64,000 nucleotides of DNA from an uncultured archaeon. Its GTDB lineage: Archaea; Halobacteriota; Methanosarcinia; Methanosarcinales; Methanoperedenaceae. Position numbers and translations under genes: made by a program. The stretch is from the NCBI GenBank assembly GCA_902384525.1, contig CABMCA010000097.1:1-64000 (forward strand). The letters are read 5' to 3'. Of this stretch, positions 820-35,552 are shown piece after piece; position 1 is the stretch's first letter, and the number at the start of each line of letters is the position of its first letter. Below the pieces are notes generated by a model that was not told the origin of the DNA, did not search any database, and saw only the letters and a program-made list of their open reading frames with translations.

Positions 820-1224
820 ATGAGAATTCAAAATAGATTATCAAGAGATATAATGACACGGGATGTTGTAACAGTCCCGATGAATGCCCCCGTAAAGCAT
901 ATTGCAGATTTGATTAGCCGAAAAAGAATCTCATCTGTCGTAGTCATAGATAATGTTGGTGAAGCTATGGGTGTCATATCGGATACGGATATATTGAAAA
1001 TCATTGGAAAAGGTAACTGGGAGAAAATGAATGCTGAAAATATCATGACCCACAATCTGGAATTCGTAAAACCGACATCCACATTGACCGAAGCGGCAGG
1101 TATCATGGGAAAAAAGCATATTCACAGGTTACTTGTCTTTTCAGAGGGTGGAGTAGGAGCATCCCACAGGCCTATCGGGATACTGAGCGCGAGTGATATA
1201 GTAAGAGAAGCTGCCAGAGAATGA
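820..1224 (+). CDS. two-CBS-domain protein
   Basis: A 134-residue protein made of a tandem CBS pair (Bateman module) and little else. The first CBS is at about residues 10-65 (DIMTRDVVTV through GVISDTDILKI) and the second at about 70-132 (NIMTHNLEFV through GILSASDIVR). Such modules usually bind adenine nucleotides or SAM and act as energy or ligand sensors; the target here is unknown. The start at 820 follows a good ribosome binding site, AAGAAGGA, at 804-811. It converges with the pst operon, its stop lying 5 bases from the pstB stop. A pst link is suggested only by adjacency. Confidence 0.85.
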   Translation: MRIQNRLSRDIMTRDVVTVPMNAPVKHIADLISRKRISSVVVIDNVGEAMGVISDTDILKIIGKGNWEKMNAENIMTHNLEFVKPTSTLTEAAGIMGKKHIHRLLVFSEGGVGASHRPIGILSASDIVREAARE

Positions 1225-1229
1225 TCTAA

Positions 1230-2225
1230 TCATTCTTTTTTCTGTATCACTACCTCCCAATCAGTTTTATTTATCTGTTTCACGCTCATTACCTTATGCC
1301 CGTCAGCTTCCATACCTCTTGGGACCTCTGTGACCGCCAGGGGATCATCCACGACCAGCTTAAGGACCTTTCCCTTTGAAAGCTCATGCAGCGCCTGTTT
1401 TGCCAGGACAAAATTATATGGGCATATATTTCCTTTAAGATCGACCTCTTTATCAATTTTCAGGTCAGAAAACATAGTCCCGTTAATATAAGCCCGGGTC
1501 CTTTCTTCCTTCGGGTTCTCAAACACATCGTTTGCAGGTCCATGTTCCACAAGCTCCCCGAGATAAAGATGAATTACATAATCAGCAAGCCTCATTGCCT
1601 GGTGGATATTGTGGGTTACTATCACGATAGTATAATCCTTCCTGAGTTTCAAAAGCTGCTGCTCAATATGCTGCGATGAGACCGGGTCAAGGGCAGATGT
1701 AGGCTCATCGCAAAGAATAATTTCAGGCTCAACAGCAAGGCCGCGCGCAAGGCACAACCTTTGCTGCTGGCCAATAGAGAGTTGAGAGGCTGGGGAATTC
1801 AACCTGTCCTTCACTTCTTCCCACAGACCTGTAATTGCCAGGCACTTTTGCACAGTCTCATCAAGCACAAGCTTTTTCTTTACCCCATGAATTCTCGGGC
1901 CGAAAGCCACGTTCTCATATATTGACATTGGAAGAGGTGTTGGTTTCTGGGCCAGCAGACCAAGTTTTTTCCTGATGTTAATGATATCTGTTTTTTTATC
2001 AAAGACATCCTCGTTATCGATAATGATCTTTCCTGAAAAAGTAACATTATCTGTCATATCTATGAGCCTGTTCATGCACTTTAGCATCGTGGATTTACCG
2101 CAACCTGAGGGGCCAATGATGGCAGTTATCTGCTTTTTTGGTATTTCCACGGAAATGTTCTTTAGTGCGTGATTCCCGTTGTAAGTTACGTTAAGATTCT
2201 GAATACTGATCTGGGTTTCTGTCAT
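1230..2225 (-). CDS. pstB: PstB phosphate ABC transporter ATPase with C-terminal TusA-like domain
   Basis: Residues 1-255 are a standard PstB: Walker A GPSGCGKST at about 38-46, ABC signature LSIGQQQR near 160, and Walker B IILCDEPTSALDP. It energises phosphate import through PstC/PstA. The protein is 331 residues, about 75 longer than usual PstB. The extra part, from about residue 261, reads DLKGNICPYN and continues for 70 residues, matching a full-length TusA/SirA fold with its catalytic-type Cys (C268-P269); the second proline of the usual CPxP is Asn. The pstA stop TAG lies 9 bases upstream and in frame with this ATG. Last gene of pstSCAB; no phoU follows. Confidence 0.93.
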   Translation of the reverse strand: MTETQISIQNLNVTYNGNHALKNISVEIPKKQITAIIGPSGCGKSTMLKCMNRLIDMTDNVTFSGKIIIDNEDVFDKKTDIINIRKKLGLLAQKPTPLPMSIYENVAFGPRIHGVKKKLVLDETVQKCLAITGLWEEVKDRLNSPASQLSIGQQQRLCLARGLAVEPEIILCDEPTSALDPVSSQHIEQQLLKLRKDYTIVIVTHNIHQAMRLADYVIHLYLGELVEHGPANDVFENPKEERTRAYINGTMFSDLKIDKEVDLKGNICPYNFVLAKQALHELSKGKVLKLVVDDPLAVTEVPRGMEADGHKVMSVKQINKTDWEVVIQKKE

Positions 2226-2234
2226 TTTGTCTAC

Positions 2235-3086
2235 CTATTTTATTATGAACCTGGTATATTTTTTTGCAAGAAGTCTTGTAATTATGCTGATGACAAGGAC
2301 GATGACCAGAAGTATTACTGCTGATGCGTATGCTTTCTGCTGCACCTGTGGTAAAGGTGTACTGAGCTGGGAAAATATTGCTATGGGCAAAGATGCAGTG
2401 GCATCGAATAGAGTTCCCGGAATGCGATCCGTATATCCTGCCGTGAAGAGTATCGATGCTGCATCCCCGATCCCTCTTCCGAAAGCCATCAGTACGCCTG
2501 TCAATAATCCTGGAAGGGCCTGTTTTCCCACAACTTTCAATGTGGTCTCAAACCTTGTGGCTCCAAGTGAATATGCCGTCTCTTTCAGGTCACCTGGCAC
2601 CATCTTTAGAACCTCTTCCATTGCCCTTGTCATTATGGGGATTTCCAGAAGTGCAAGAACAATTATACCTCCAAGAAGGGATGCCCTGATATGAAAATAT
2701 ATCAAAACAATGTATCCGAATGCCCCGTAGACAATAGAGGGTGTGCCCCAGAGGATATCCAGTGAGAGCCTTGTCAGGCCCGATAGTCTTGTACCTCCGG
2801 AATACTCTTTCTGGAGATAGAAGGCGATTGCGATACTGAGGAAAAATGCCAGTATAGTACCGCCAGCCGCAAGATAAAGCGAACCAACGATGGCATTCAG
2901 GATCCCTCCGCCTTTCCCCAGTAAATATCCTCCCTCACCGGTCTTTGTGATCATATCAAAACTCAACACTGGCAGCCCTCTCCACAGGATCACACCGACA
3001 ACAAAAAGAAGACTTCCAATCACAAATACAAGAGATAAGATCATCAATGCCTTGAAAATCGACTCTTCGATCCTTCTAAATTCCAT
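2235..3086 (-). CDS. pstA: PstA phosphate ABC transporter permease
   Basis: Membrane permease with about six transmembrane segments and the EAA-type loop AYSLGATRFETTLKVV of binding-protein-dependent importers. With PstC it forms the phosphate channel. An upstream in-frame extension to 3140 exists, but the start at 3086 (MEFRRIEES) is preferred because it overlaps the pstC stop as TAATG, the usual translational coupling. About 283 residues, normal for PstA. It ends in TAG, followed by GTA GAC AAA and then the pstB ATG in the same frame, so TAG must act as a stop here unless PstA and PstB are fused by readthrough. Confidence 0.93.
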   Translation of the reverse strand: MEFRRIEESIFKALMILSLVFVIGSLLFVVGVILWRGLPVLSFDMITKTGEGGYLLGKGGGILNAIVGSLYLAAGGTILAFFLSIAIAFYLQKEYSGGTRLSGLTRLSLDILWGTPSIVYGAFGYIVLIYFHIRASLLGGIIVLALLEIPIMTRAMEEVLKMVPGDLKETAYSLGATRFETTLKVVGKQALPGLLTGVLMAFGRGIGDAASILFTAGYTDRIPGTLFDATASLPIAIFSQLSTPLPQVQQKAYASAVILLVIVLVISIITRLLAKKYTRFIIK

Positions 3087-3994
3087 TATATAATACCCCG
3101 TTCTATTCTCACAAGAATAATTCTTGCAATTACATTGCATATCAGGACTACAAGCAGAAGTATGAGAGCTGCAAGAAGGATGGCAGAATCGTAGAGATCA
3201 ATTGACATCATTTCGCCATAGGTATTGGCTATCAGGGCAGGCAAAGGATAGGCGGGATCAAAAATTGATGATGGTACTTTTGCCACGTTCCCCACGACCA
3301 TCAGTACTGCCATGGTTTCCCCGAATGCCCGTGAAAAACCCAGAACGATAGCTGCGATGATCCCGGGTCTTGCTTTCCGGAGGACCACGTGTTTTATGGT
3401 CTGCCATTTCGTAGCTCCAAGAGACAGGGAAACTTCCCTTAGTTCCCCGGATACTCTTCTCATGACCTCGCCTGTAACCGATATGATGATGGGGAAAACC
3501 ATAATGGAAAGCACGATCCCTCCTGCAAGGATACTGTATCCCCCTATTGTTTCCGCGCCCATGGCAGGAGCAAGGGTATCATTAATGAAAGGTACGACTG
3601 CAAGGACGCCAAAGAGGCCATATACCACAGAGGGTATGCCTGCGAGCAGGTCTACAAGCGGCATAACCATTTCCCTGAGACCATTACTTGCGTATTCTGA
3701 AAGGTATATGGAACTTAAGAGGCTGACGGGAATCGCTATTACAGTCGCAAGAACTGTTACCCATAATGTTCCCATGATAAATGGGTAGAACCCGAATTTT
3801 CCTGAAAACGGGCTCCATTCTATTGAGAACAATAGATCGGATATGGGAACTGTTATCAATATCGGACTTGCCCTGAAAAAAAGACCGGCTGCCATGAAAA
3901 ATAATAACAGGAAGGCAAATACAGTTGCAGCAAGCATTAGCCTGCTTGAAAGTACGTCTTTTAATCTTCTTGTGTTCATGCTGCTGTTAATCAA
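3086..3994 (-). CDS. pstC: PstC phosphate ABC transporter permease
   Basis: A 302-residue integral membrane protein with about six hydrophobic spans, the PstC-type stretch PLVDLLAGIPSVVYGLFG, and the cytoplasmic coupling loop SLSLGATKWQTIKHVVL. It pairs with PstA as the transmembrane part of the high-affinity phosphate importer. The start at 3994 overlaps the pstS stop by 8 bases; an alternative start is MNTRRLKDV a few codons in. Gene order pstS-pstC-pstA-pstB is the common archaeal and bacterial order. Nothing unusual in the sequence. Confidence 0.93.
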   Translation of the reverse strand: MINSSMNTRRLKDVLSSRLMLAATVFAFLLLFFMAAGLFFRASPILITVPISDLLFSIEWSPFSGKFGFYPFIMGTLWVTVLATVIAIPVSLLSSIYLSEYASNGLREMVMPLVDLLAGIPSVVYGLFGVLAVVPFINDTLAPAMGAETIGGYSILAGGIVLSIMVFPIIISVTGEVMRRVSGELREVSLSLGATKWQTIKHVVLRKARPGIIAAIVLGFSRAFGETMAVLMVVGNVAKVPSSIFDPAYPLPALIANTYGEMMSIDLYDSAILLAALILLLVVLICNVIARIILVRIERGII

Positions 3995-5593: not shown

Positions 5594-5924
5594 AAGAGGC
5601 GATGTCTATTGGATCAGACTTGACCCGATAGAGGGTTCAGAGATAGGAAAAACAAGACCTGCTGTCGTGATCTCAAATAACATTAACAATGAATTTGCAG
5701 ATACTGTTACAGTTCTTCCTGTTACTTCAAGCGTGGGGAAGGTGTATCCTTTTGAAGTCCTCCTGAAGAAAGGCATCGCAAATATGCCCGCTGATTCCAG
5801 AGTAAAGGCAAATCAGATAAGAACTGTGGATAAAAAAAGGCTTCGGGAGCTAATCGGGACAATACCTGAGGCGATCTTGAAAGAGATCGAGAAAGCTGTG
5901 AAGATACACCTTGAGTTAAAGTAA
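5580..5924 (+). CDS. MazF/PemK-type toxin, mRNA interferase
   Basis: A 114-residue PemK/MazF fold protein. It starts MELIKRGDVYWIRLDPIEGSE and has the conserved KTRPAVVISNN strand and loop and the TVTVLPVTS strand, all characteristic of this ribonuclease toxin family; the late ANQIRTVDKKRL segment also matches. MazF enzymes cut RNA in a sequence-specific way and are silenced by binding the antitoxin tail. The start at 5580 lies inside the antitoxin gene, giving the usual antitoxin-first overlapping order. Length is normal. The pair sits between 19-bp direct repeats. Confidence 0.9.
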   Translation: MELIKRGDVYWIRLDPIEGSEIGKTRPAVVISNNINNEFADTVTVLPVTSSVGKVYPFEVLLKKGIANMPADSRVKANQIRTVDKKRLRELIGTIPEAILKEIEKAVKIHLELK

Positions 5925-6031
5925 AATTTATGGGAGAATGCGATAAAATCCTAAATTTCCGAAAAATTAGGCACTATATTATATAAAAATTGAAGCTGAG
6001 GACTGGAATTGCCCCGATGGTTCAAAAAACT

Positions 6032-6050
6032 GAATGATTGCGGCAAAAAA
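6032..6050 (+). repeat. 19-bp direct repeat, right copy
   Basis: Second copy of GAATGATTGCGGCAAAAAA, downstream of the toxin gene. The surrounding 5925-6334 stretch contains no convincing gene; short overlapping open frames on both strands there look like chance. Confidence 0.75.
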
Positions 6051-6334
6051 AATCTTGATCTGGTTAATTCAAGCCTGCATGATCCATTACTGCCTTCTGA
6101 GCATTCAGGAATTTGACTATCTGGTCAAATTCAATGTCATTTTCCTGTTTTTTGTTCCCGGTTTTCATCCTGGGAGGAATATTTCTTCGGCTGCATATTT
6201 CTTCAATCATATTAATCGCCATAAAAAGAATATACTGGTGAATATTTATAATCACATAAAGAGGCAGAAATTGACGCGAATATTCCGGCGGTAGTAAAAA
6301 TAATAGGATAATTGGAAATTTCCAATACTAAAAG

Positions 6335-6625
6335 TTACAACCCTATTAAGACAAGTTCGAACTTGATACCCATGCAGGATTGACAAAAGCCAAGGAAATC
6401 TTTTGCATTGACCGACATTTCTTCATACAGGGATTTTGATATATAGAACACAATATGGACCTTTCCCTCATTAATTCTCTTCTTAATCTCACCGTGCAGT
6501 TCTTCGAAAAGGGAAGCAAGGGTCTTGAAATTGATCCTTTTCAGGATACGGATGCGCCCGATCCCGGTCTCATCTATCCAGATCCTGTAATTAGTGGTTT
6601 TTCGAATAAATACATCTTCATTCAT
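6335..6625 (-). CDS. hypothetical protein, 96 aa
   Basis: Not recognised. A soluble 96-residue protein (MNEDVFIRKTTNYRIWIDET...), with alternating strands and an amphipathic helix around FKTLASLFEELHGEIKKRI; no membrane segment, two Cys near the end. Its ATG overlaps the stop of the upstream minus-strand frame as TAATG, suggesting the two were translated together. That upstream frame lacks a usable start, so this gene may be the downstream survivor of a decaying operon. Confidence 0.5.
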   Translation of the reverse strand: MNEDVFIRKTTNYRIWIDETGIGRIRILKRINFKTLASLFEELHGEIKKRINEGKVHIVFYISKSLYEEMSVNAKDFLGFCQSCMGIKFELVLIGL

Positions 6626-6990
6626 TATATTTCCTTACTGCCCGCCTCAATTTCCCATTTGACTTCTTCATGCTGCCTTTTCAGTATATTTTCAAGTTCA
6701 TATAACGTGTTGCGCCTGTTCGTACGCTGCCAGCTGCCTTCTATTAATGCGAGAGAACGATTTAATCTCTCAAGCCCGATCCTTATTTTCTGGTGTTCTT
6801 GTTGTCTTAATTTTCCCTTTGCGTATTGTTCATATGAAGGTACTGATATTTTCTCTGTGTCTTCACCTTCAGCTATACCTTGCGAACCATCCAGGTCCTG
6901 CAGTTCATTATTAAGGTTTTTACCAGTAAAGGCAAAAACGATCCCTTCTTTGGTTTGACATATTATATCACTTCCTATTTTATTTGTATA
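6625..6990 (-). pseudogene. small gene with damaged start, opening KEGIVFAFTG
   Basis: An open frame of about 120 codons between stops, with no in-frame ATG, GTG or TTG in its first part. The ATG at 6959-6961 is one base out of frame with the body, which reads CQTKEGIVFAFTGKNL, then an acidic stretch, then a basic helical region (KLRQQEHQKIRIGLERLNRS) likely to form a coiled coil. It ends at TAA 6625-6627, coupled to the 96-aa gene. Either a single-base insertion broke the start or a recoding event is needed. Function unknown. Confidence 0.45.
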
Positions 6991-7262
6991 TTATATGGCA
7001 CAATCCTAAAATCCAGTTATCCCAGTAATTATCTTGGACGCAGATTTCACTAATTTACGCATCTACTGCCTTAAATTCTGCATTAGCCCGTGTCAATCTG
7101 GTCTTAAAAATCACTGGAAAATGGAACAGTGCCATATTATATATTCATGTATAAACAGGAGATATTTGCCTTATTCCTTCTGAAAACAATATTGATCAAC
7201 CAAATATGGCCTGATTACAAGATTTAAATATATATGACAATTATTGAACTCAATGTGATAAA
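6991..7262. other. AT-rich intergenic stretch
   Basis: No gene is supported. It contains a CGCAGATTT-like fragment (near 7040) resembling the tandem 10-mers at 37099, and an AT-rich segment at about 7223-7235 (TTAAATATATATG) that could be a TATA box for the small gene beginning at 7263. Confidence 0.4.
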
Positions 7263-7476
7263 ATGACACAACACGAAAGAAGGGATTTACTTTGTCCCTG
7301 ATAAAGAAAACATAAAACGGTATAAATGCCCTAATTGCAAACATCCAATACAGTTAAAAAGCGCTGATTTCATTCGCGGGATTGCGATGGTTTCATGCGT
7401 GGACTTGCGGTACGGGTTCATTTACGATCGAGGAGACTTTGTTGAGATAATGAAAATGGAAAAGGTAAAAACATGA
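7263..7476 (+). pseudogene. small zinc-ribbon-like protein with out-of-frame start
   Basis: The body is a 68-codon frame beginning TKEGIYFVPDKENIKRYKCP at 7273 and ending TGA at 7474-7476. It has a CPNC pair and a later single Cys (MVSCVDL), so a full four-ligand zinc ribbon is not present, but a metal site is possible. The ATG at 7263 has good position but is in the +1 frame and terminates after 12 codons; the in-frame codon upstream of the body is TGA. The gene overlaps the next small gene as ATGA. Broken by one base, or recoded. Confidence 0.45.
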
Positions 7477-7568
7477 AAACTAATGAAGAGATAACAAACA
7501 AAAAGCAGGAGAATGACGAGGACGAAGACCTGCAAAGGTTCCTTCGCGGCGGATTTGGGGCAAAATAA
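7473..7568 (+). CDS. 31-residue acidic small protein
   Basis: A very short frame, MKTNEEITNKKQENDEDEDL..., ending FLRGGFGAK before TAA. It starts as ATGA overlap with the preceding zinc-ribbon-like frame, which argues for co-translation. Highly charged, no membrane segment or known motif. Too short to assign; could be a chance frame, but the exact overlap and the biased composition make it plausible. Confidence 0.35.
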   Translation: MKTNEEITNKKQENDEDEDLQRFLRGGFGAK

Positions 7569-7740
7569 AGGCTTATGCTAACTGGTTATTTTGGGATAAC
7601 CATAATTGAGTGGGCGATGTGTTCAGATAAGGGGGTTATCTCCACATCCTATTCAACTCTATAAAAAAGTAGTAGAATATGGACAATACTTGCTTGAATG
7701 AATAGCCTTATATTATATTAATTCGAATTTAAGATTGGTG

Positions 7741-10097: not shown

Positions 10098-10889
10098 GTG
10101 AAAAACAATATCAAATACATAATAATTTTAGTCATATTAACATTTATCATTAACCAGGTATCTGCCGCTGAAGTAAAGATCAGTCCAGTGAACCAGACAG
10201 TAATTCAAGGTGACATATTTAATTTGAATGTATCTATTGACCCTTCTGGTGCAGAAATTGCCGGTTGGCAGTTAAATGTCGAATTTAACAATTCCATGCT
10301 TTCCTTAAATAATGTCATAGAAGGAGAGTTTTTTAAACAAACCGGAGCCGGTACATTATTCAACAAGGTTATATTAAATAATTCAGATGTTACATCAATA
10401 AATGTTTACAGCGCTATTCTTGGTCCTTATAAAGTATCCACTCCCGGAACATTTATGATTATCAACTTTACTACTATAGGTTCGCAAGAACAGACCGGAA
10501 TATATCTTTCCAATGTACAGATTGTTGATCAGGCCGGGAATTACGTACCTGTTAATGTAATTAATGGAAGTGTAAATATCAACAGATTTTCTAATATACT
10601 TCCATTGGTGAGATATATCAATGGTACAGTACTTGACAGCGTCACTAAAGCAGGTATCATCGGTGTGAACATATTCACCAACACCAGCATTTCAACAACT
10701 ACTGATGCATCAGGATTCTATTCGCTTGCTGTTCCTGATGGTACATATGATCTTACGGTTGAATCCGGTCCGAAATATTATTCGAATAGTACCACAATCT
10801 CAACAACTTCAAGCGCTGTTGTTATGCAGGATATTGAACTTGTTAAGAAGCCGACAGGAACTATAACCGGAGTTGTTACACATAATTAA
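10098..10889 (+). CDS. secreted cohesin-domain protein
   Basis: GTG start (the overlapping ATG at 10096 reads straight into a stop). Signal peptide of about 23 residues (KYIIILVILTFIINQVSAAE), then a cohesin-like domain at about 25-160: VKISPVNQTVIQGDIFNLNV, GWQLNVEFNNSMLSL, and IYLSNVQIVDQAGNYVPV match the cohesin beta-sandwich. Residues about 175-245 form a carboxypeptidase-regulatory-like fold (GTVLDSVTKAGIIGVNIFTN). The end, GTITGVVTHN, looks like the beginning of another such repeat and stops abruptly, so the protein may be truncated. Cohesins bind dockerins; a dockerin protein is encoded at 34239-35552. Confidence 0.8.
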   Translation: MKNNIKYIIILVILTFIINQVSAAEVKISPVNQTVIQGDIFNLNVSIDPSGAEIAGWQLNVEFNNSMLSLNNVIEGEFFKQTGAGTLFNKVILNNSDVTSINVYSAILGPYKVSTPGTFMIINFTTIGSQEQTGIYLSNVQIVDQAGNYVPVNVINGSVNINRFSNILPLVRYINGTVLDSVTKAGIIGVNIFTNTSISTTTDASGFYSLAVPDGTYDLTVESGPKYYSNSTTISTTSSAVVMQDIELVKKPTGTITGVVTHN

Positions 10890-34238: not shown

Positions 34239-35552
34239 ATGGAATCATCAAAAAATCATAAAAAACAATTTTTTGAGAAGACCCTGATTACATTATTCAT
34301 TGTATCAATACTGATCATTTCCGGACCTGGACAGGCCATTTCTGTTTTTATTTCCGGTCTTGATCCTTCCTATTCCCAGGGCAACTCTGTCAATTTCACG
34401 ATGTTAATTACTATCAATGACCGGGATAAATTTGTCCCGATGAAAGACATTACTCTTAATATTACAGGAGCTAGAAGCTTCAATGGTACTTTTAGACTTG
34501 ACGGGACTCCGATATCCGGTGACCCCATTATCAGCATGATGCCAGTATCAACTCCTCAGCCATATCATTATGGATACGGCTATGGTTATGGATACGGCTA
34601 TGGTTATGGATACGGCTATGGTTATGGATACGGCTATGGATACGGATACGGCTATGGATACGGATACGGAGCCGGGGGCAGCGACGTCATATATAAATAT
34701 AATTTCTCAATAAATACAACTTCCCTGCCATTGGGCAGCTATACCGCAGTCGCAAGTCTTAACACCGGAAAGGCTGACACGAAGAAATCATTTGATTCGG
34801 CACCTGCAACTTTTGAGATCATACCTGTATTAGAAATACCTGCATTCGAAGTTGGTATTGATATTTTGGAGAACAAAATTAATCCCGGAAGCAATGGAGA
34901 GATCATAATAGCAATCTTATCAAATGCAACATTTAATGCCAGTGCTGAGGTAGATCCTTCAAGCGTCATAGTCACATTTGGTCAATCAGATGCAAAATTG
35001 AAAACGCCTTATTCTCAATTTAAAGATGTGAACAAAGATGGTTACCTCGATCTCCTTCTCCATTTCAAGATAAAGGAGACTGGAATTCAATGTGGAGATA
35101 CACAGGCAACCCTGATAGGAAAAACCATAACTGGATTGAATTTTATGGGTAATGATAGTTTTGTAACTATTGGTTGCGATAAACTCTACGCCAGCAACTG
35201 CGCAAACTGCCATGGGGTTCTGGCCAATTCGACCAAGCTCAATAGAACAGCGTTGAAGATCAATACTGCTATTAGTACAGTCCCTGCCATGAGTAATCTC
35301 TCGTCCCTTAGCCAGGCACAGATACAGGCGATTGCCGATGCGCTAGCAACACCAGACTCATCCTCCTGTACACTTTCGAACGGTAAGGCAGTGGATCTCA
35401 ATGGAGATGGTATCGTTGACATCTTGGATGCATCAAAATTGATCCTTAAATGGGGAACAAGCGACAGTGCATCGGATCTCAATGGTGATGGTATTGTTGA
35501 CTTCTCGGATGTATCAAAATTGATCCTTAAATGGGGCAAGGTGTGCACATAA
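34239..35552 (+). CDS. secreted protein with Tyr-Gly repeat, c-type heme site and dockerin
   Basis: A 437-residue protein starting MESSKNHKKQ; the ATG at 34239 has a strong AAGGAG ribosome binding site (34224-34229), so the upstream frame to 34146 is not used. Order: signal segment (ending near GPGQA, residue 30); beta-sandwich-like region; a Tyr-Gly repeat at about 110-145; a second beta region; a small cytochrome-c-like domain at about 313-375 with heme motif CANCH (C321, C324, H325) and a possible Met351 ligand; and two dockerin repeats, DLNGDGIVDILDASKLILKW and DLNGDGIVDFSDVSKLILKW. The dockerin should dock to a cohesin; one is encoded at 10098. Possible extracellular electron carrier. 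Confidence 0.85.
   Translation: MESSKNHKKQFFEKTLITLFIVSILIISGPGQAISVFISGLDPSYSQGNSVNFTMLITINDRDKFVPMKDITLNITGARSFNGTFRLDGTPISGDPIISMMPVSTPQPYHYGYGYGYGYGYGYGYGYGYGYGYGYGYGYGYGYGAGGSDVIYKYNFSINTTSLPLGSYTAVASLNTGKADTKKSFDSAPATFEIIPVLEIPAFEVGIDILENKINPGSNGEIIIAILSNATFNASAEVDPSSVIVTFGQSDAKLKTPYSQFKDVNKDGYLDLLLHFKIKETGIQCGDTQATLIGKTITGLNFMGNDSFVTIGCDKLYASNCANCHGVLANSTKLNRTALKINTAISTVPAMSNLSSLSQAQIQAIADALATPDSSSCTLSNGKAVDLNGDGIVDILDASKLILKWGTSDSASDLNGDGIVDFSDVSKLILKWGKVCT
34572..34673 (+). repeat. 18-bp tandem repeat encoding Gly-Tyr units
   Basis: Three exact copies of GGATACGGCTATGGTTAT (34572-34625), two copies of the variant GGATACGGCTATGGATAC (34626-34661), then a partial unit. All keep the reading frame and encode alternating Gly and Tyr. 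Confidence 0.92.

What the first reader, a model, noticed from the sequence alone, without database searches (positions are those of the whole stretch)
34239..35552. Secreted protein joining a Tyr-Gly repeat, a single c-type heme domain and a dockerin
Residues 321-325 are CANCH in a small cytochrome-c-like domain with a plausible Met ligand, followed by two clear dockerin repeats and preceded by a signal segment and a long Tyr-Gly stretch. Dockerins plug into cohesins, so a heme carrier could be attached to a surface scaffold. This combination would suit extracellular electron transfer in an anaerobic methanotroph; the role is inference, while the domains are read directly from the sequence.
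Basis: partly seen in the sequence, partly recalled or inferred. Interest (0 to 1): 0.78.

Follow-up and report, generated by a model that had tools for sequence, protein, structure and literature searches.

The report
Docking heme protein of methane-eating archaeon
A secreted protein of a methane-oxidising archaeon ends in a small heme domain related to one that the metal-reducing bacterium Geobacter uses outside the cell, followed by a plug-in (dockerin) domain whose likely socket protein is encoded elsewhere in the same genome, so these archaea may clip exchangeable electron carriers onto their surface.

Summary
Gene 34239-35552 (+) encodes a 437-aa secreted protein: signal segment, Tyr-Gly stretch, beta domain, one c-type heme domain (CANCH 321-325, Met351) and a dockerin. 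The genus is Candidatus Methanoperedens. The heme domain belongs to a defined family: the His-Met 'tethered' monoheme domains of Geobacter PgcA (PDB 8QJ6; profile E=4e-19), whose Met ligand is invariant in all 27 Methanoperedens copies examined. The dockerin passes Pfam's cut-off, folds confidently and matches only dockerins in the PDB. Its best socket candidate is a two-cohesin protein on contig C51. That gene lies directly downstream of a second gene ending in the same heme-dockerin cassette (92% DNA identity to the window). In four genomes this dockerin-cohesin gene pair exists in two types; dockerin and cohesin types change together while the proteins carrying them do not, which is good evidence that they bind. 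YG paralogs end in PGF-pre-PGF plus a membrane helix; here that anchor is replaced by heme plus dockerin. Best reading: an exchangeable, docked monoheme electron carrier on the cell surface. Heme loading, binding and electron transfer are inferred. Such fusions are rare (three proteins in 2 of 31 species) and undescribed in papers I could search.

The parts
34239..35552 (+). Whole gene, 437 aa: signal segment - YG surface module - 'IQCGDT' beta domain - monoheme c-type domain - dockerin
34239..34340 (+). Signal segment, residues 1-34 (...TLITLFIVSILIISGPGQA)
   Evidence: read from sequence; the same segment recurs in paralogs. No signal-peptide program was run
34341..34823 (+). N-terminal beta-rich surface module (residues 35-195; beta content inferred, not modelled) interrupted by the Tyr-Gly stretch
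   Evidence: 42-58% identical N-terminal stretches of the best-matching Methanoperedens surface proteins
34568..34670 (+). Tyr-Gly stretch (residues 111-144), encoded by an 18-bp DNA tandem repeat, 5.7 copies, 97% match
34836..35171 (+). Second domain (residues 200-311, ...ETGIQCGDTQATLIGKT...VTIGC), probably beta, shared with YG paralogs
35172..35354 (+). PgcA-type monoheme c-type cytochrome domain (residues 312-372)
35199..35213 (+). Heme attachment motif CANCH (residues 321-325)
35289..35291 (+). Met351, predicted distal heme ligand (His325+26); invariant in 27 of 27 copies and aligned with the Met ligand of 8QJ6
   Evidence: PMC11520253
35394..35546 (+). Dockerin (residues 386-436), two calcium loops at 386 and 413
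35184..35552 (+). Heme-dockerin cassette 92% identical in DNA to contig C51 of the same genome; identity starts at the heme domain and ends at the stop codon
57354..58697 (-). Paralog in the window with a related N-terminal surface module (31% identity over residues 4-196) ending in PGF-pre-PGF plus a membrane helix, with no heme and no dockerin
10098..10889 (+). Secreted single-cohesin protein (cohesin plus CarboxypepD_reg) of a different cohesin type; not the expected partner

Best explanation
The protein is a docked monoheme electron carrier of the Methanoperedens cell surface. It is exported, receives one covalent heme with His325 and Met351 as ligands, and is held outside the cell by its C-terminal dockerin. 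The likely socket is the two-cohesin protein encoded on contig C51, which can hold two dockerin-bearing proteins at once, for example this one and the large secreted heme-dockerin protein encoded just upstream of it. Small mobile heme domains brought close together would pass electrons by tethered diffusion, as proposed for Geobacter PgcA, with the cohesin-dockerin clasp doing between polypeptides what PgcA's (PT)x linkers do within one. The Tyr-Gly module is probably structural or adhesive. Shown: domains, homology, ligand conservation, cassette identity, gene pairing, co-segregating dockerin/cohesin types. Inferred: heme loading, binding, electron transfer.
For: Heme domain homologous to PgcA domain I/II (8QJ6 E=4e-19, 8QJG E=6e-17), whose solved structures show His-Met ligation and which act in extracellular iron-oxide reduction (PMC11520253). 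Met invariant in 27/27 copies. The same domain forms tandem arrays with PT linkers, in proteins with 13 and 9 CxxCH motifs, in sister species, beside a hexa-CxxCH cytochrome gene. Dockerin by Pfam, calcium loops, AF2 and PDB fold. In the same genome, C51 carries a large-protein-heme-dockerin gene 26 bp upstream of a two-cohesin gene. That gene pair recurs in G023, G004 and G030. Type swap: the large protein of G030 is 80-82% identical to G000/G023 but its dockerin only 27-50%; the G004 partner's C-terminal domain is 81-84% identical to G000/G023 but its cohesin only 31-33%; the dockerin and cohesin types agree in all four. The window dockerin is 84-88% identical to type 1 and at most 48% to others among its 12 best matches. 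The G030 cohesin partner itself carries a cupredoxin and a CxxCH. Heme-attachment machinery is present: four Cytochrom_C_asm matches above cut-off.
Against: No binding, heme or expression data. Only one dockerin repeat is present in the C51 copy. The acidic residue that hydrogen-bonds the proximal His in PgcA (His+7) is not conserved here. The window fusion lacks the PT linker, so its heme may be less mobile. Heme is absent from the G023 and G004 versions of the large dockerin protein, so docking does not require it. The C51 cohesin protein shows no membrane anchor; the large partner's role as surface lattice is assumed. AlphaFold2 from one sequence did not fold the heme domain confidently.
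Confidence: 0.66

Rival explanations
1. Recent recombination relic: the 3' end of a C51-like gene was pasted onto a YG surface-protein gene, replacing its membrane anchor, and the hybrid has no selected function yet.
For: 92% DNA identity confined to the cassette, starting inside the heme domain and stopping at the stop codon; dS only 0.14. No other species has this exact architecture.
Against: dN/dS 0.45 with heme ligands, Met and both calcium loops intact; signal segment and reading frame intact; the two-repeat dockerin is complete.
Confidence: 0.18
2. Structural or adhesive docking protein in which the heme domain is incidental: the dockerin and Tyr-Gly module build a matrix or aid cell contact.
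For: Dockerins and cohesins in these archaea are mostly on non-redox proteins (about 37 of 40 dockerin proteins in the genus lack the heme domain); literature proposes adhesion (PMC5244752, PMC10553843).
Against: Heme occurs at the same position in both dockerin types (C51, G030), with near-identical junctions (AQN[DN]TSITPEPT), and the G030 cohesin partner carries two further redox motifs, which is unexpected if redox were incidental.
Confidence: 0.12
3. Heme acts as a sensor, peroxidase-like centre or Tyr cross-linking catalyst rather than a relay.
For: Tyr-rich stretch in the same chain as a heme.
Against: Conserved His-Met six-coordination does not favour ligand binding; relatives are electron carriers (PMC11520253); the organism is anaerobic.
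Confidence: 0.04

Closest known systems
PgcA of Geobacter sulfurreducens (domains I and II, PDB 8QJ6 and 8QJG)
   Same: Homologous small monoheme domain, CxxCH plus Met ligand, extracellular; PT-type linkers in the C51 and G030 relatives and in the Methanoperedens arrays
   Different: One heme domain instead of three; no domain III and no lipoprotein anchor; no acidic residue at His+7; attached through a dockerin
Type I dockerin-cohesin pairs (cellulosome and archaeal forms)
   Same: Two calcium-loop repeats, dockerin fold (best PDB hit 2y3n_B), cohesin genes in the same genome
   Different: Cargo is a heme carrier, not a hydrolase; the candidate socket protein has only two cohesins plus an ISVPY domain
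Dockerin/cohesin proteins of ANME archaea (PMC9012536, PMC5244752)
   Same: Same lineage and same docking modules; attachment to S-layer-type proteins was proposed
   Different: Reported cargo is ABC substrate-binding proteins and S-layer domains; heme-dockerin fusions are not described in the passages on dockerins that I read
ANME S-layer multiheme cytochromes MHC-A/MHC-B (PMC9012536)
   Same: Proposed electron passage at the archaeal surface layer
   Different: Those carry 20-80 hemes and an S-layer domain in one chain; here one heme, non-covalently docked

Membership tests
Type I dockerin (PF00404) | Profile match above curated cut-off | tested here: met
   26.2 against 22.9 bits
Type I dockerin (PF00404) | Two calcium loops with D/N at 1, 3, 5, 9, 12 | tested here: met
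   DLNGDGIVDILD and DLNGDGIVDFSD
Type I dockerin (PF00404) | Dockerin fold | tested here: met
   pLDDT above 90 in that part; PDB 2y3n_B E=5e-4, TM 0.80 by target
Type I dockerin (PF00404) | Binds a cohesin | not testable with these tools
   indirect only: co-segregating types in four gene pairs
PgcA-type monoheme domain | Sequence homology to solved domains | tested here: met
PgcA-type monoheme domain | CxxCH with distal Met ligand | tested here: met
   His325/Met351, Met in 27/27 copies
PgcA-type monoheme domain | Acidic residue at His+7 (Glu281/Asp372) | tested here: not met
   Thr in the window copy; mostly Thr or Ser in relatives
PgcA-type monoheme domain | Low-spin c-type heme near -50 to -110 mV | not testable with these tools
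   needs purified protein
PgcA protein (whole architecture) | Three heme domains tethered by (PT)x linkers, lipid anchor | tested here: not met
   one heme, no PT linker, signal segment without a cysteine lipobox
Cellulosome | Dockerin on glycoside hydrolases, scaffoldin with cellulose-binding module | tested here: not met
   no hydrolase or CBM in this protein or in the C51 partner
ANME S-layer multiheme cytochrome | S-layer domain and many hemes in one chain | tested here: not met
   one CxxCH, no PF07752 match

The most novel reading that the evidence does not exclude
Methanoperedens builds a modular redox coat on the cellulosome principle: two-cohesin connectors clip together surface proteins carrying PgcA-type hemes (and, in one species, a blue-copper domain), so that electron carriers outside the cell can be exchanged or added by docking rather than fixed in one giant multiheme protein.
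Probability: 0.35. Interest if true: 0.87.

Novelty: new variant of a known kind. Interest (0 to 1): 0.64.

Why it matters
How anaerobic methanotrophs pass electrons through and beyond their protein coat is open. Dockerins and cohesins in these archaea have had no assigned role; one review only speculated about 'MHC adhesion' (PMC5244752). This locus gives a specific, testable case: a defined heme domain with a solved bacterial homologue, a defined dockerin type, and a named candidate cohesin partner in the same genome. It also extends PgcA-type tethered heme domains, described in bacteria, to archaea, including arrays in proteins with 9 and 13 CxxCH motifs.

Tried and rejected
Generic Pfam/NCBIfam cytochrome models alone: too weak for this copy; replaced by a family profile and PDB search. 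The cohesin in the window (10098-10889) as partner: rejected, it is of the C123 type and only 29-35% identical to C51-type cohesins. Viral and plasmid collections: no relatives. Structure prediction of the heme domain from one sequence: low confidence, not used. The large C51/C111 protein as a classical S-layer protein: apart from a DUF7507 match in the G030 homologue, no informative Pfam or PDB match outside its heme and dockerin, so it is called only a large secreted protein. The two contigs share a 28-bp end overlap, but a repeat boundary lies there, so its full length is uncertain.

Full report
Observation. The gene at 34239-35552 (+) is real and as described: 437 aa, signal segment, Tyr-Gly run, CANCH at 321-325 and two dockerin loops. 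Pfam gives Dockerin_1 above its cut-off and two cytochrome c models below theirs. The window is contig C97 of a 2.9-Mb genome.

Heme domain. Homologous domains were collected from the genus. In 27 aligned copies the two Cys, the His, a Met 26 residues after the His (in the window copy) and several helix positions are invariant. A profile of 19 of them finds the crystal structures of PgcA domains I and II of Geobacter sulfurreducens (E=4e-19, 6e-17), and the window protein alone finds domain I at E=5e-10 with the Met aligned. PgcA is an extracellular triheme protein needed for iron-oxide reduction. Its domains I and II have His-Met ligands (Met at His+27), potentials near -50 to -110 mV, and are joined by flexible (PT)x linkers; electron transfer is proposed to occur by tethered diffusion (PMC11520253). 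The acidic residue near the proximal His in PgcA is not kept here. In sister species the same domain forms tandem arrays with PT linkers, in proteins with 13 (G018) and 9 (G020) CxxCH motifs, each followed by a hexa-CxxCH cytochrome gene. In an even sample of 392 genomes of the phylum the domain was found only in this genome (few Methanoperedens were in that sample).

Dockerin and socket. The dockerin region is modelled at pLDDT above 90 and the 20 best PDB hits are dockerins or their complexes with cohesins. The own genome holds nine dockerin matches and six cohesins above cut-off. Contig C51 ends with a second heme-dockerin gene, 92% identical in DNA to the window over 35184-35552, with the identity starting inside the heme domain and ending at the stop codon. 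26 bp downstream lies a secreted protein with two cohesins. The C51 gene has only one dockerin repeat. Its upstream part is a large secreted protein continued on contig C111, which shares a 28-bp end overlap.

Evidence that they pair. The same gene pair occurs in G023, G004 and G030. Cohesins fall into two well-supported types, G000+G023 and G004+G030, and so do the dockerins. The carriers disagree with this split: the large protein of G030 is 80-82% identical to G000/G023, yet its dockerin is only 27-50% identical; the C-terminal domain of the G004 cohesin protein is 81-84% identical to G000/G023, yet its cohesin is only 31-33%. Dockerin and cohesin types have therefore been exchanged together while the rest stayed, as expected of a binding pair. 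The window dockerin is type 1 (84-88% to C51/G023, at most 48% to the other best matches), so the C51 cohesins are its best candidate partner. The number of independent swaps is small (four gene pairs), and no binding was measured.

Architecture. Paralogs of the window protein end in a PGF-pre-PGF domain and a membrane helix. Here that anchor is replaced by heme plus dockerin, so a membrane-anchored surface protein appears to have become a docked, redox-active one. The cassette has dN 0.064 and dS 0.143: recent, with ligands and calcium loops intact. Among about 40 dockerin proteins in the genus, three carry the heme domain: window, C51 and G030. In G030 the neighbouring cohesin protein also has a cupredoxin domain and a CxxCH. 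Heme sits at the same place in C51 and G030, with nearly the same junction (AQN[DN]TSITPEPT). A profile search of 237 genomes of the class gave matches spanning heme and dockerin only in G000 (two) and G030. That search would miss fusions of dockerins with unrelated heme domains.

Mechanism. Best reading (0.66): export, heme attachment (four Cytochrom_C_asm matches in the genome), docking on the two-cohesin protein, and electron exchange between neighbouring mobile heme domains at the surface. The docking clasp would do between chains what PT linkers do within PgcA. Heme loading, docking and electron transfer are inference. Rivals: a recent recombination product without selected function (0.18), a structural or adhesive protein with incidental heme (0.12), a sensor or peroxidase (0.04).

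Known work. Dockerins and cohesins are reported as abundant in marine ANME; cargo named in the text is ABC substrate-binding proteins and S-layer domains (PMC9012536). A review speculated on cell contact or 'MHC adhesion' (PMC5244752). No paper in the searched library joined PgcA with Methanoperedens, and the one paper holding PgcA, cytochrome and dockerin together is a soil-microbiome expression study. Subscription papers and supplementary tables were not searched, so an earlier listing of such a fusion is possible.

Noticed in passing
L055:1727-4894 (G018) and L056:1564-3579 (G020): Archaeal proteins with 13 and 9 CxxCH motifs, mostly tandem PgcA-type monoheme domains joined by PT linkers, each followed by a hexa-CxxCH cytochrome gene.
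   Followed up: partly
L143:1-1941 (G030): One secreted protein carries a CxxCH motif, a cupredoxin (plastocyanin-like) domain and two cohesins.
   Followed up: partly
L143:2057-7102 (G030): The heme site of the dockerin protein reads CASASCH, a CX4CH motif instead of CxxCH.
   Followed up: no
L052:7000-7743 (C51): Heme protein with a single dockerin repeat where the window copy has two; real loss or assembly collapse not decided.
   Followed up: no
window 34568-34669: The Tyr-Gly stretch is an 18-bp DNA tandem repeat (5.7 copies, 97%), so its length probably varies between strains.
   Followed up: no
L053 (C123): 820-3878 and 5846-7590: A two-cohesin-plus-dockerin scaffold and a membrane-anchored cohesin (PGF-pre-PGF) lie near a six-CxxCH NapC/NirT-type cytochrome and a cytochrome b561 gene.
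   Followed up: no
L265 (C13) and L139:4947-6221 (G006): Distant relatives of the heme domain at the N-terminus of secreted Ig-like proteins; no dockerin seen.
   Followed up: no
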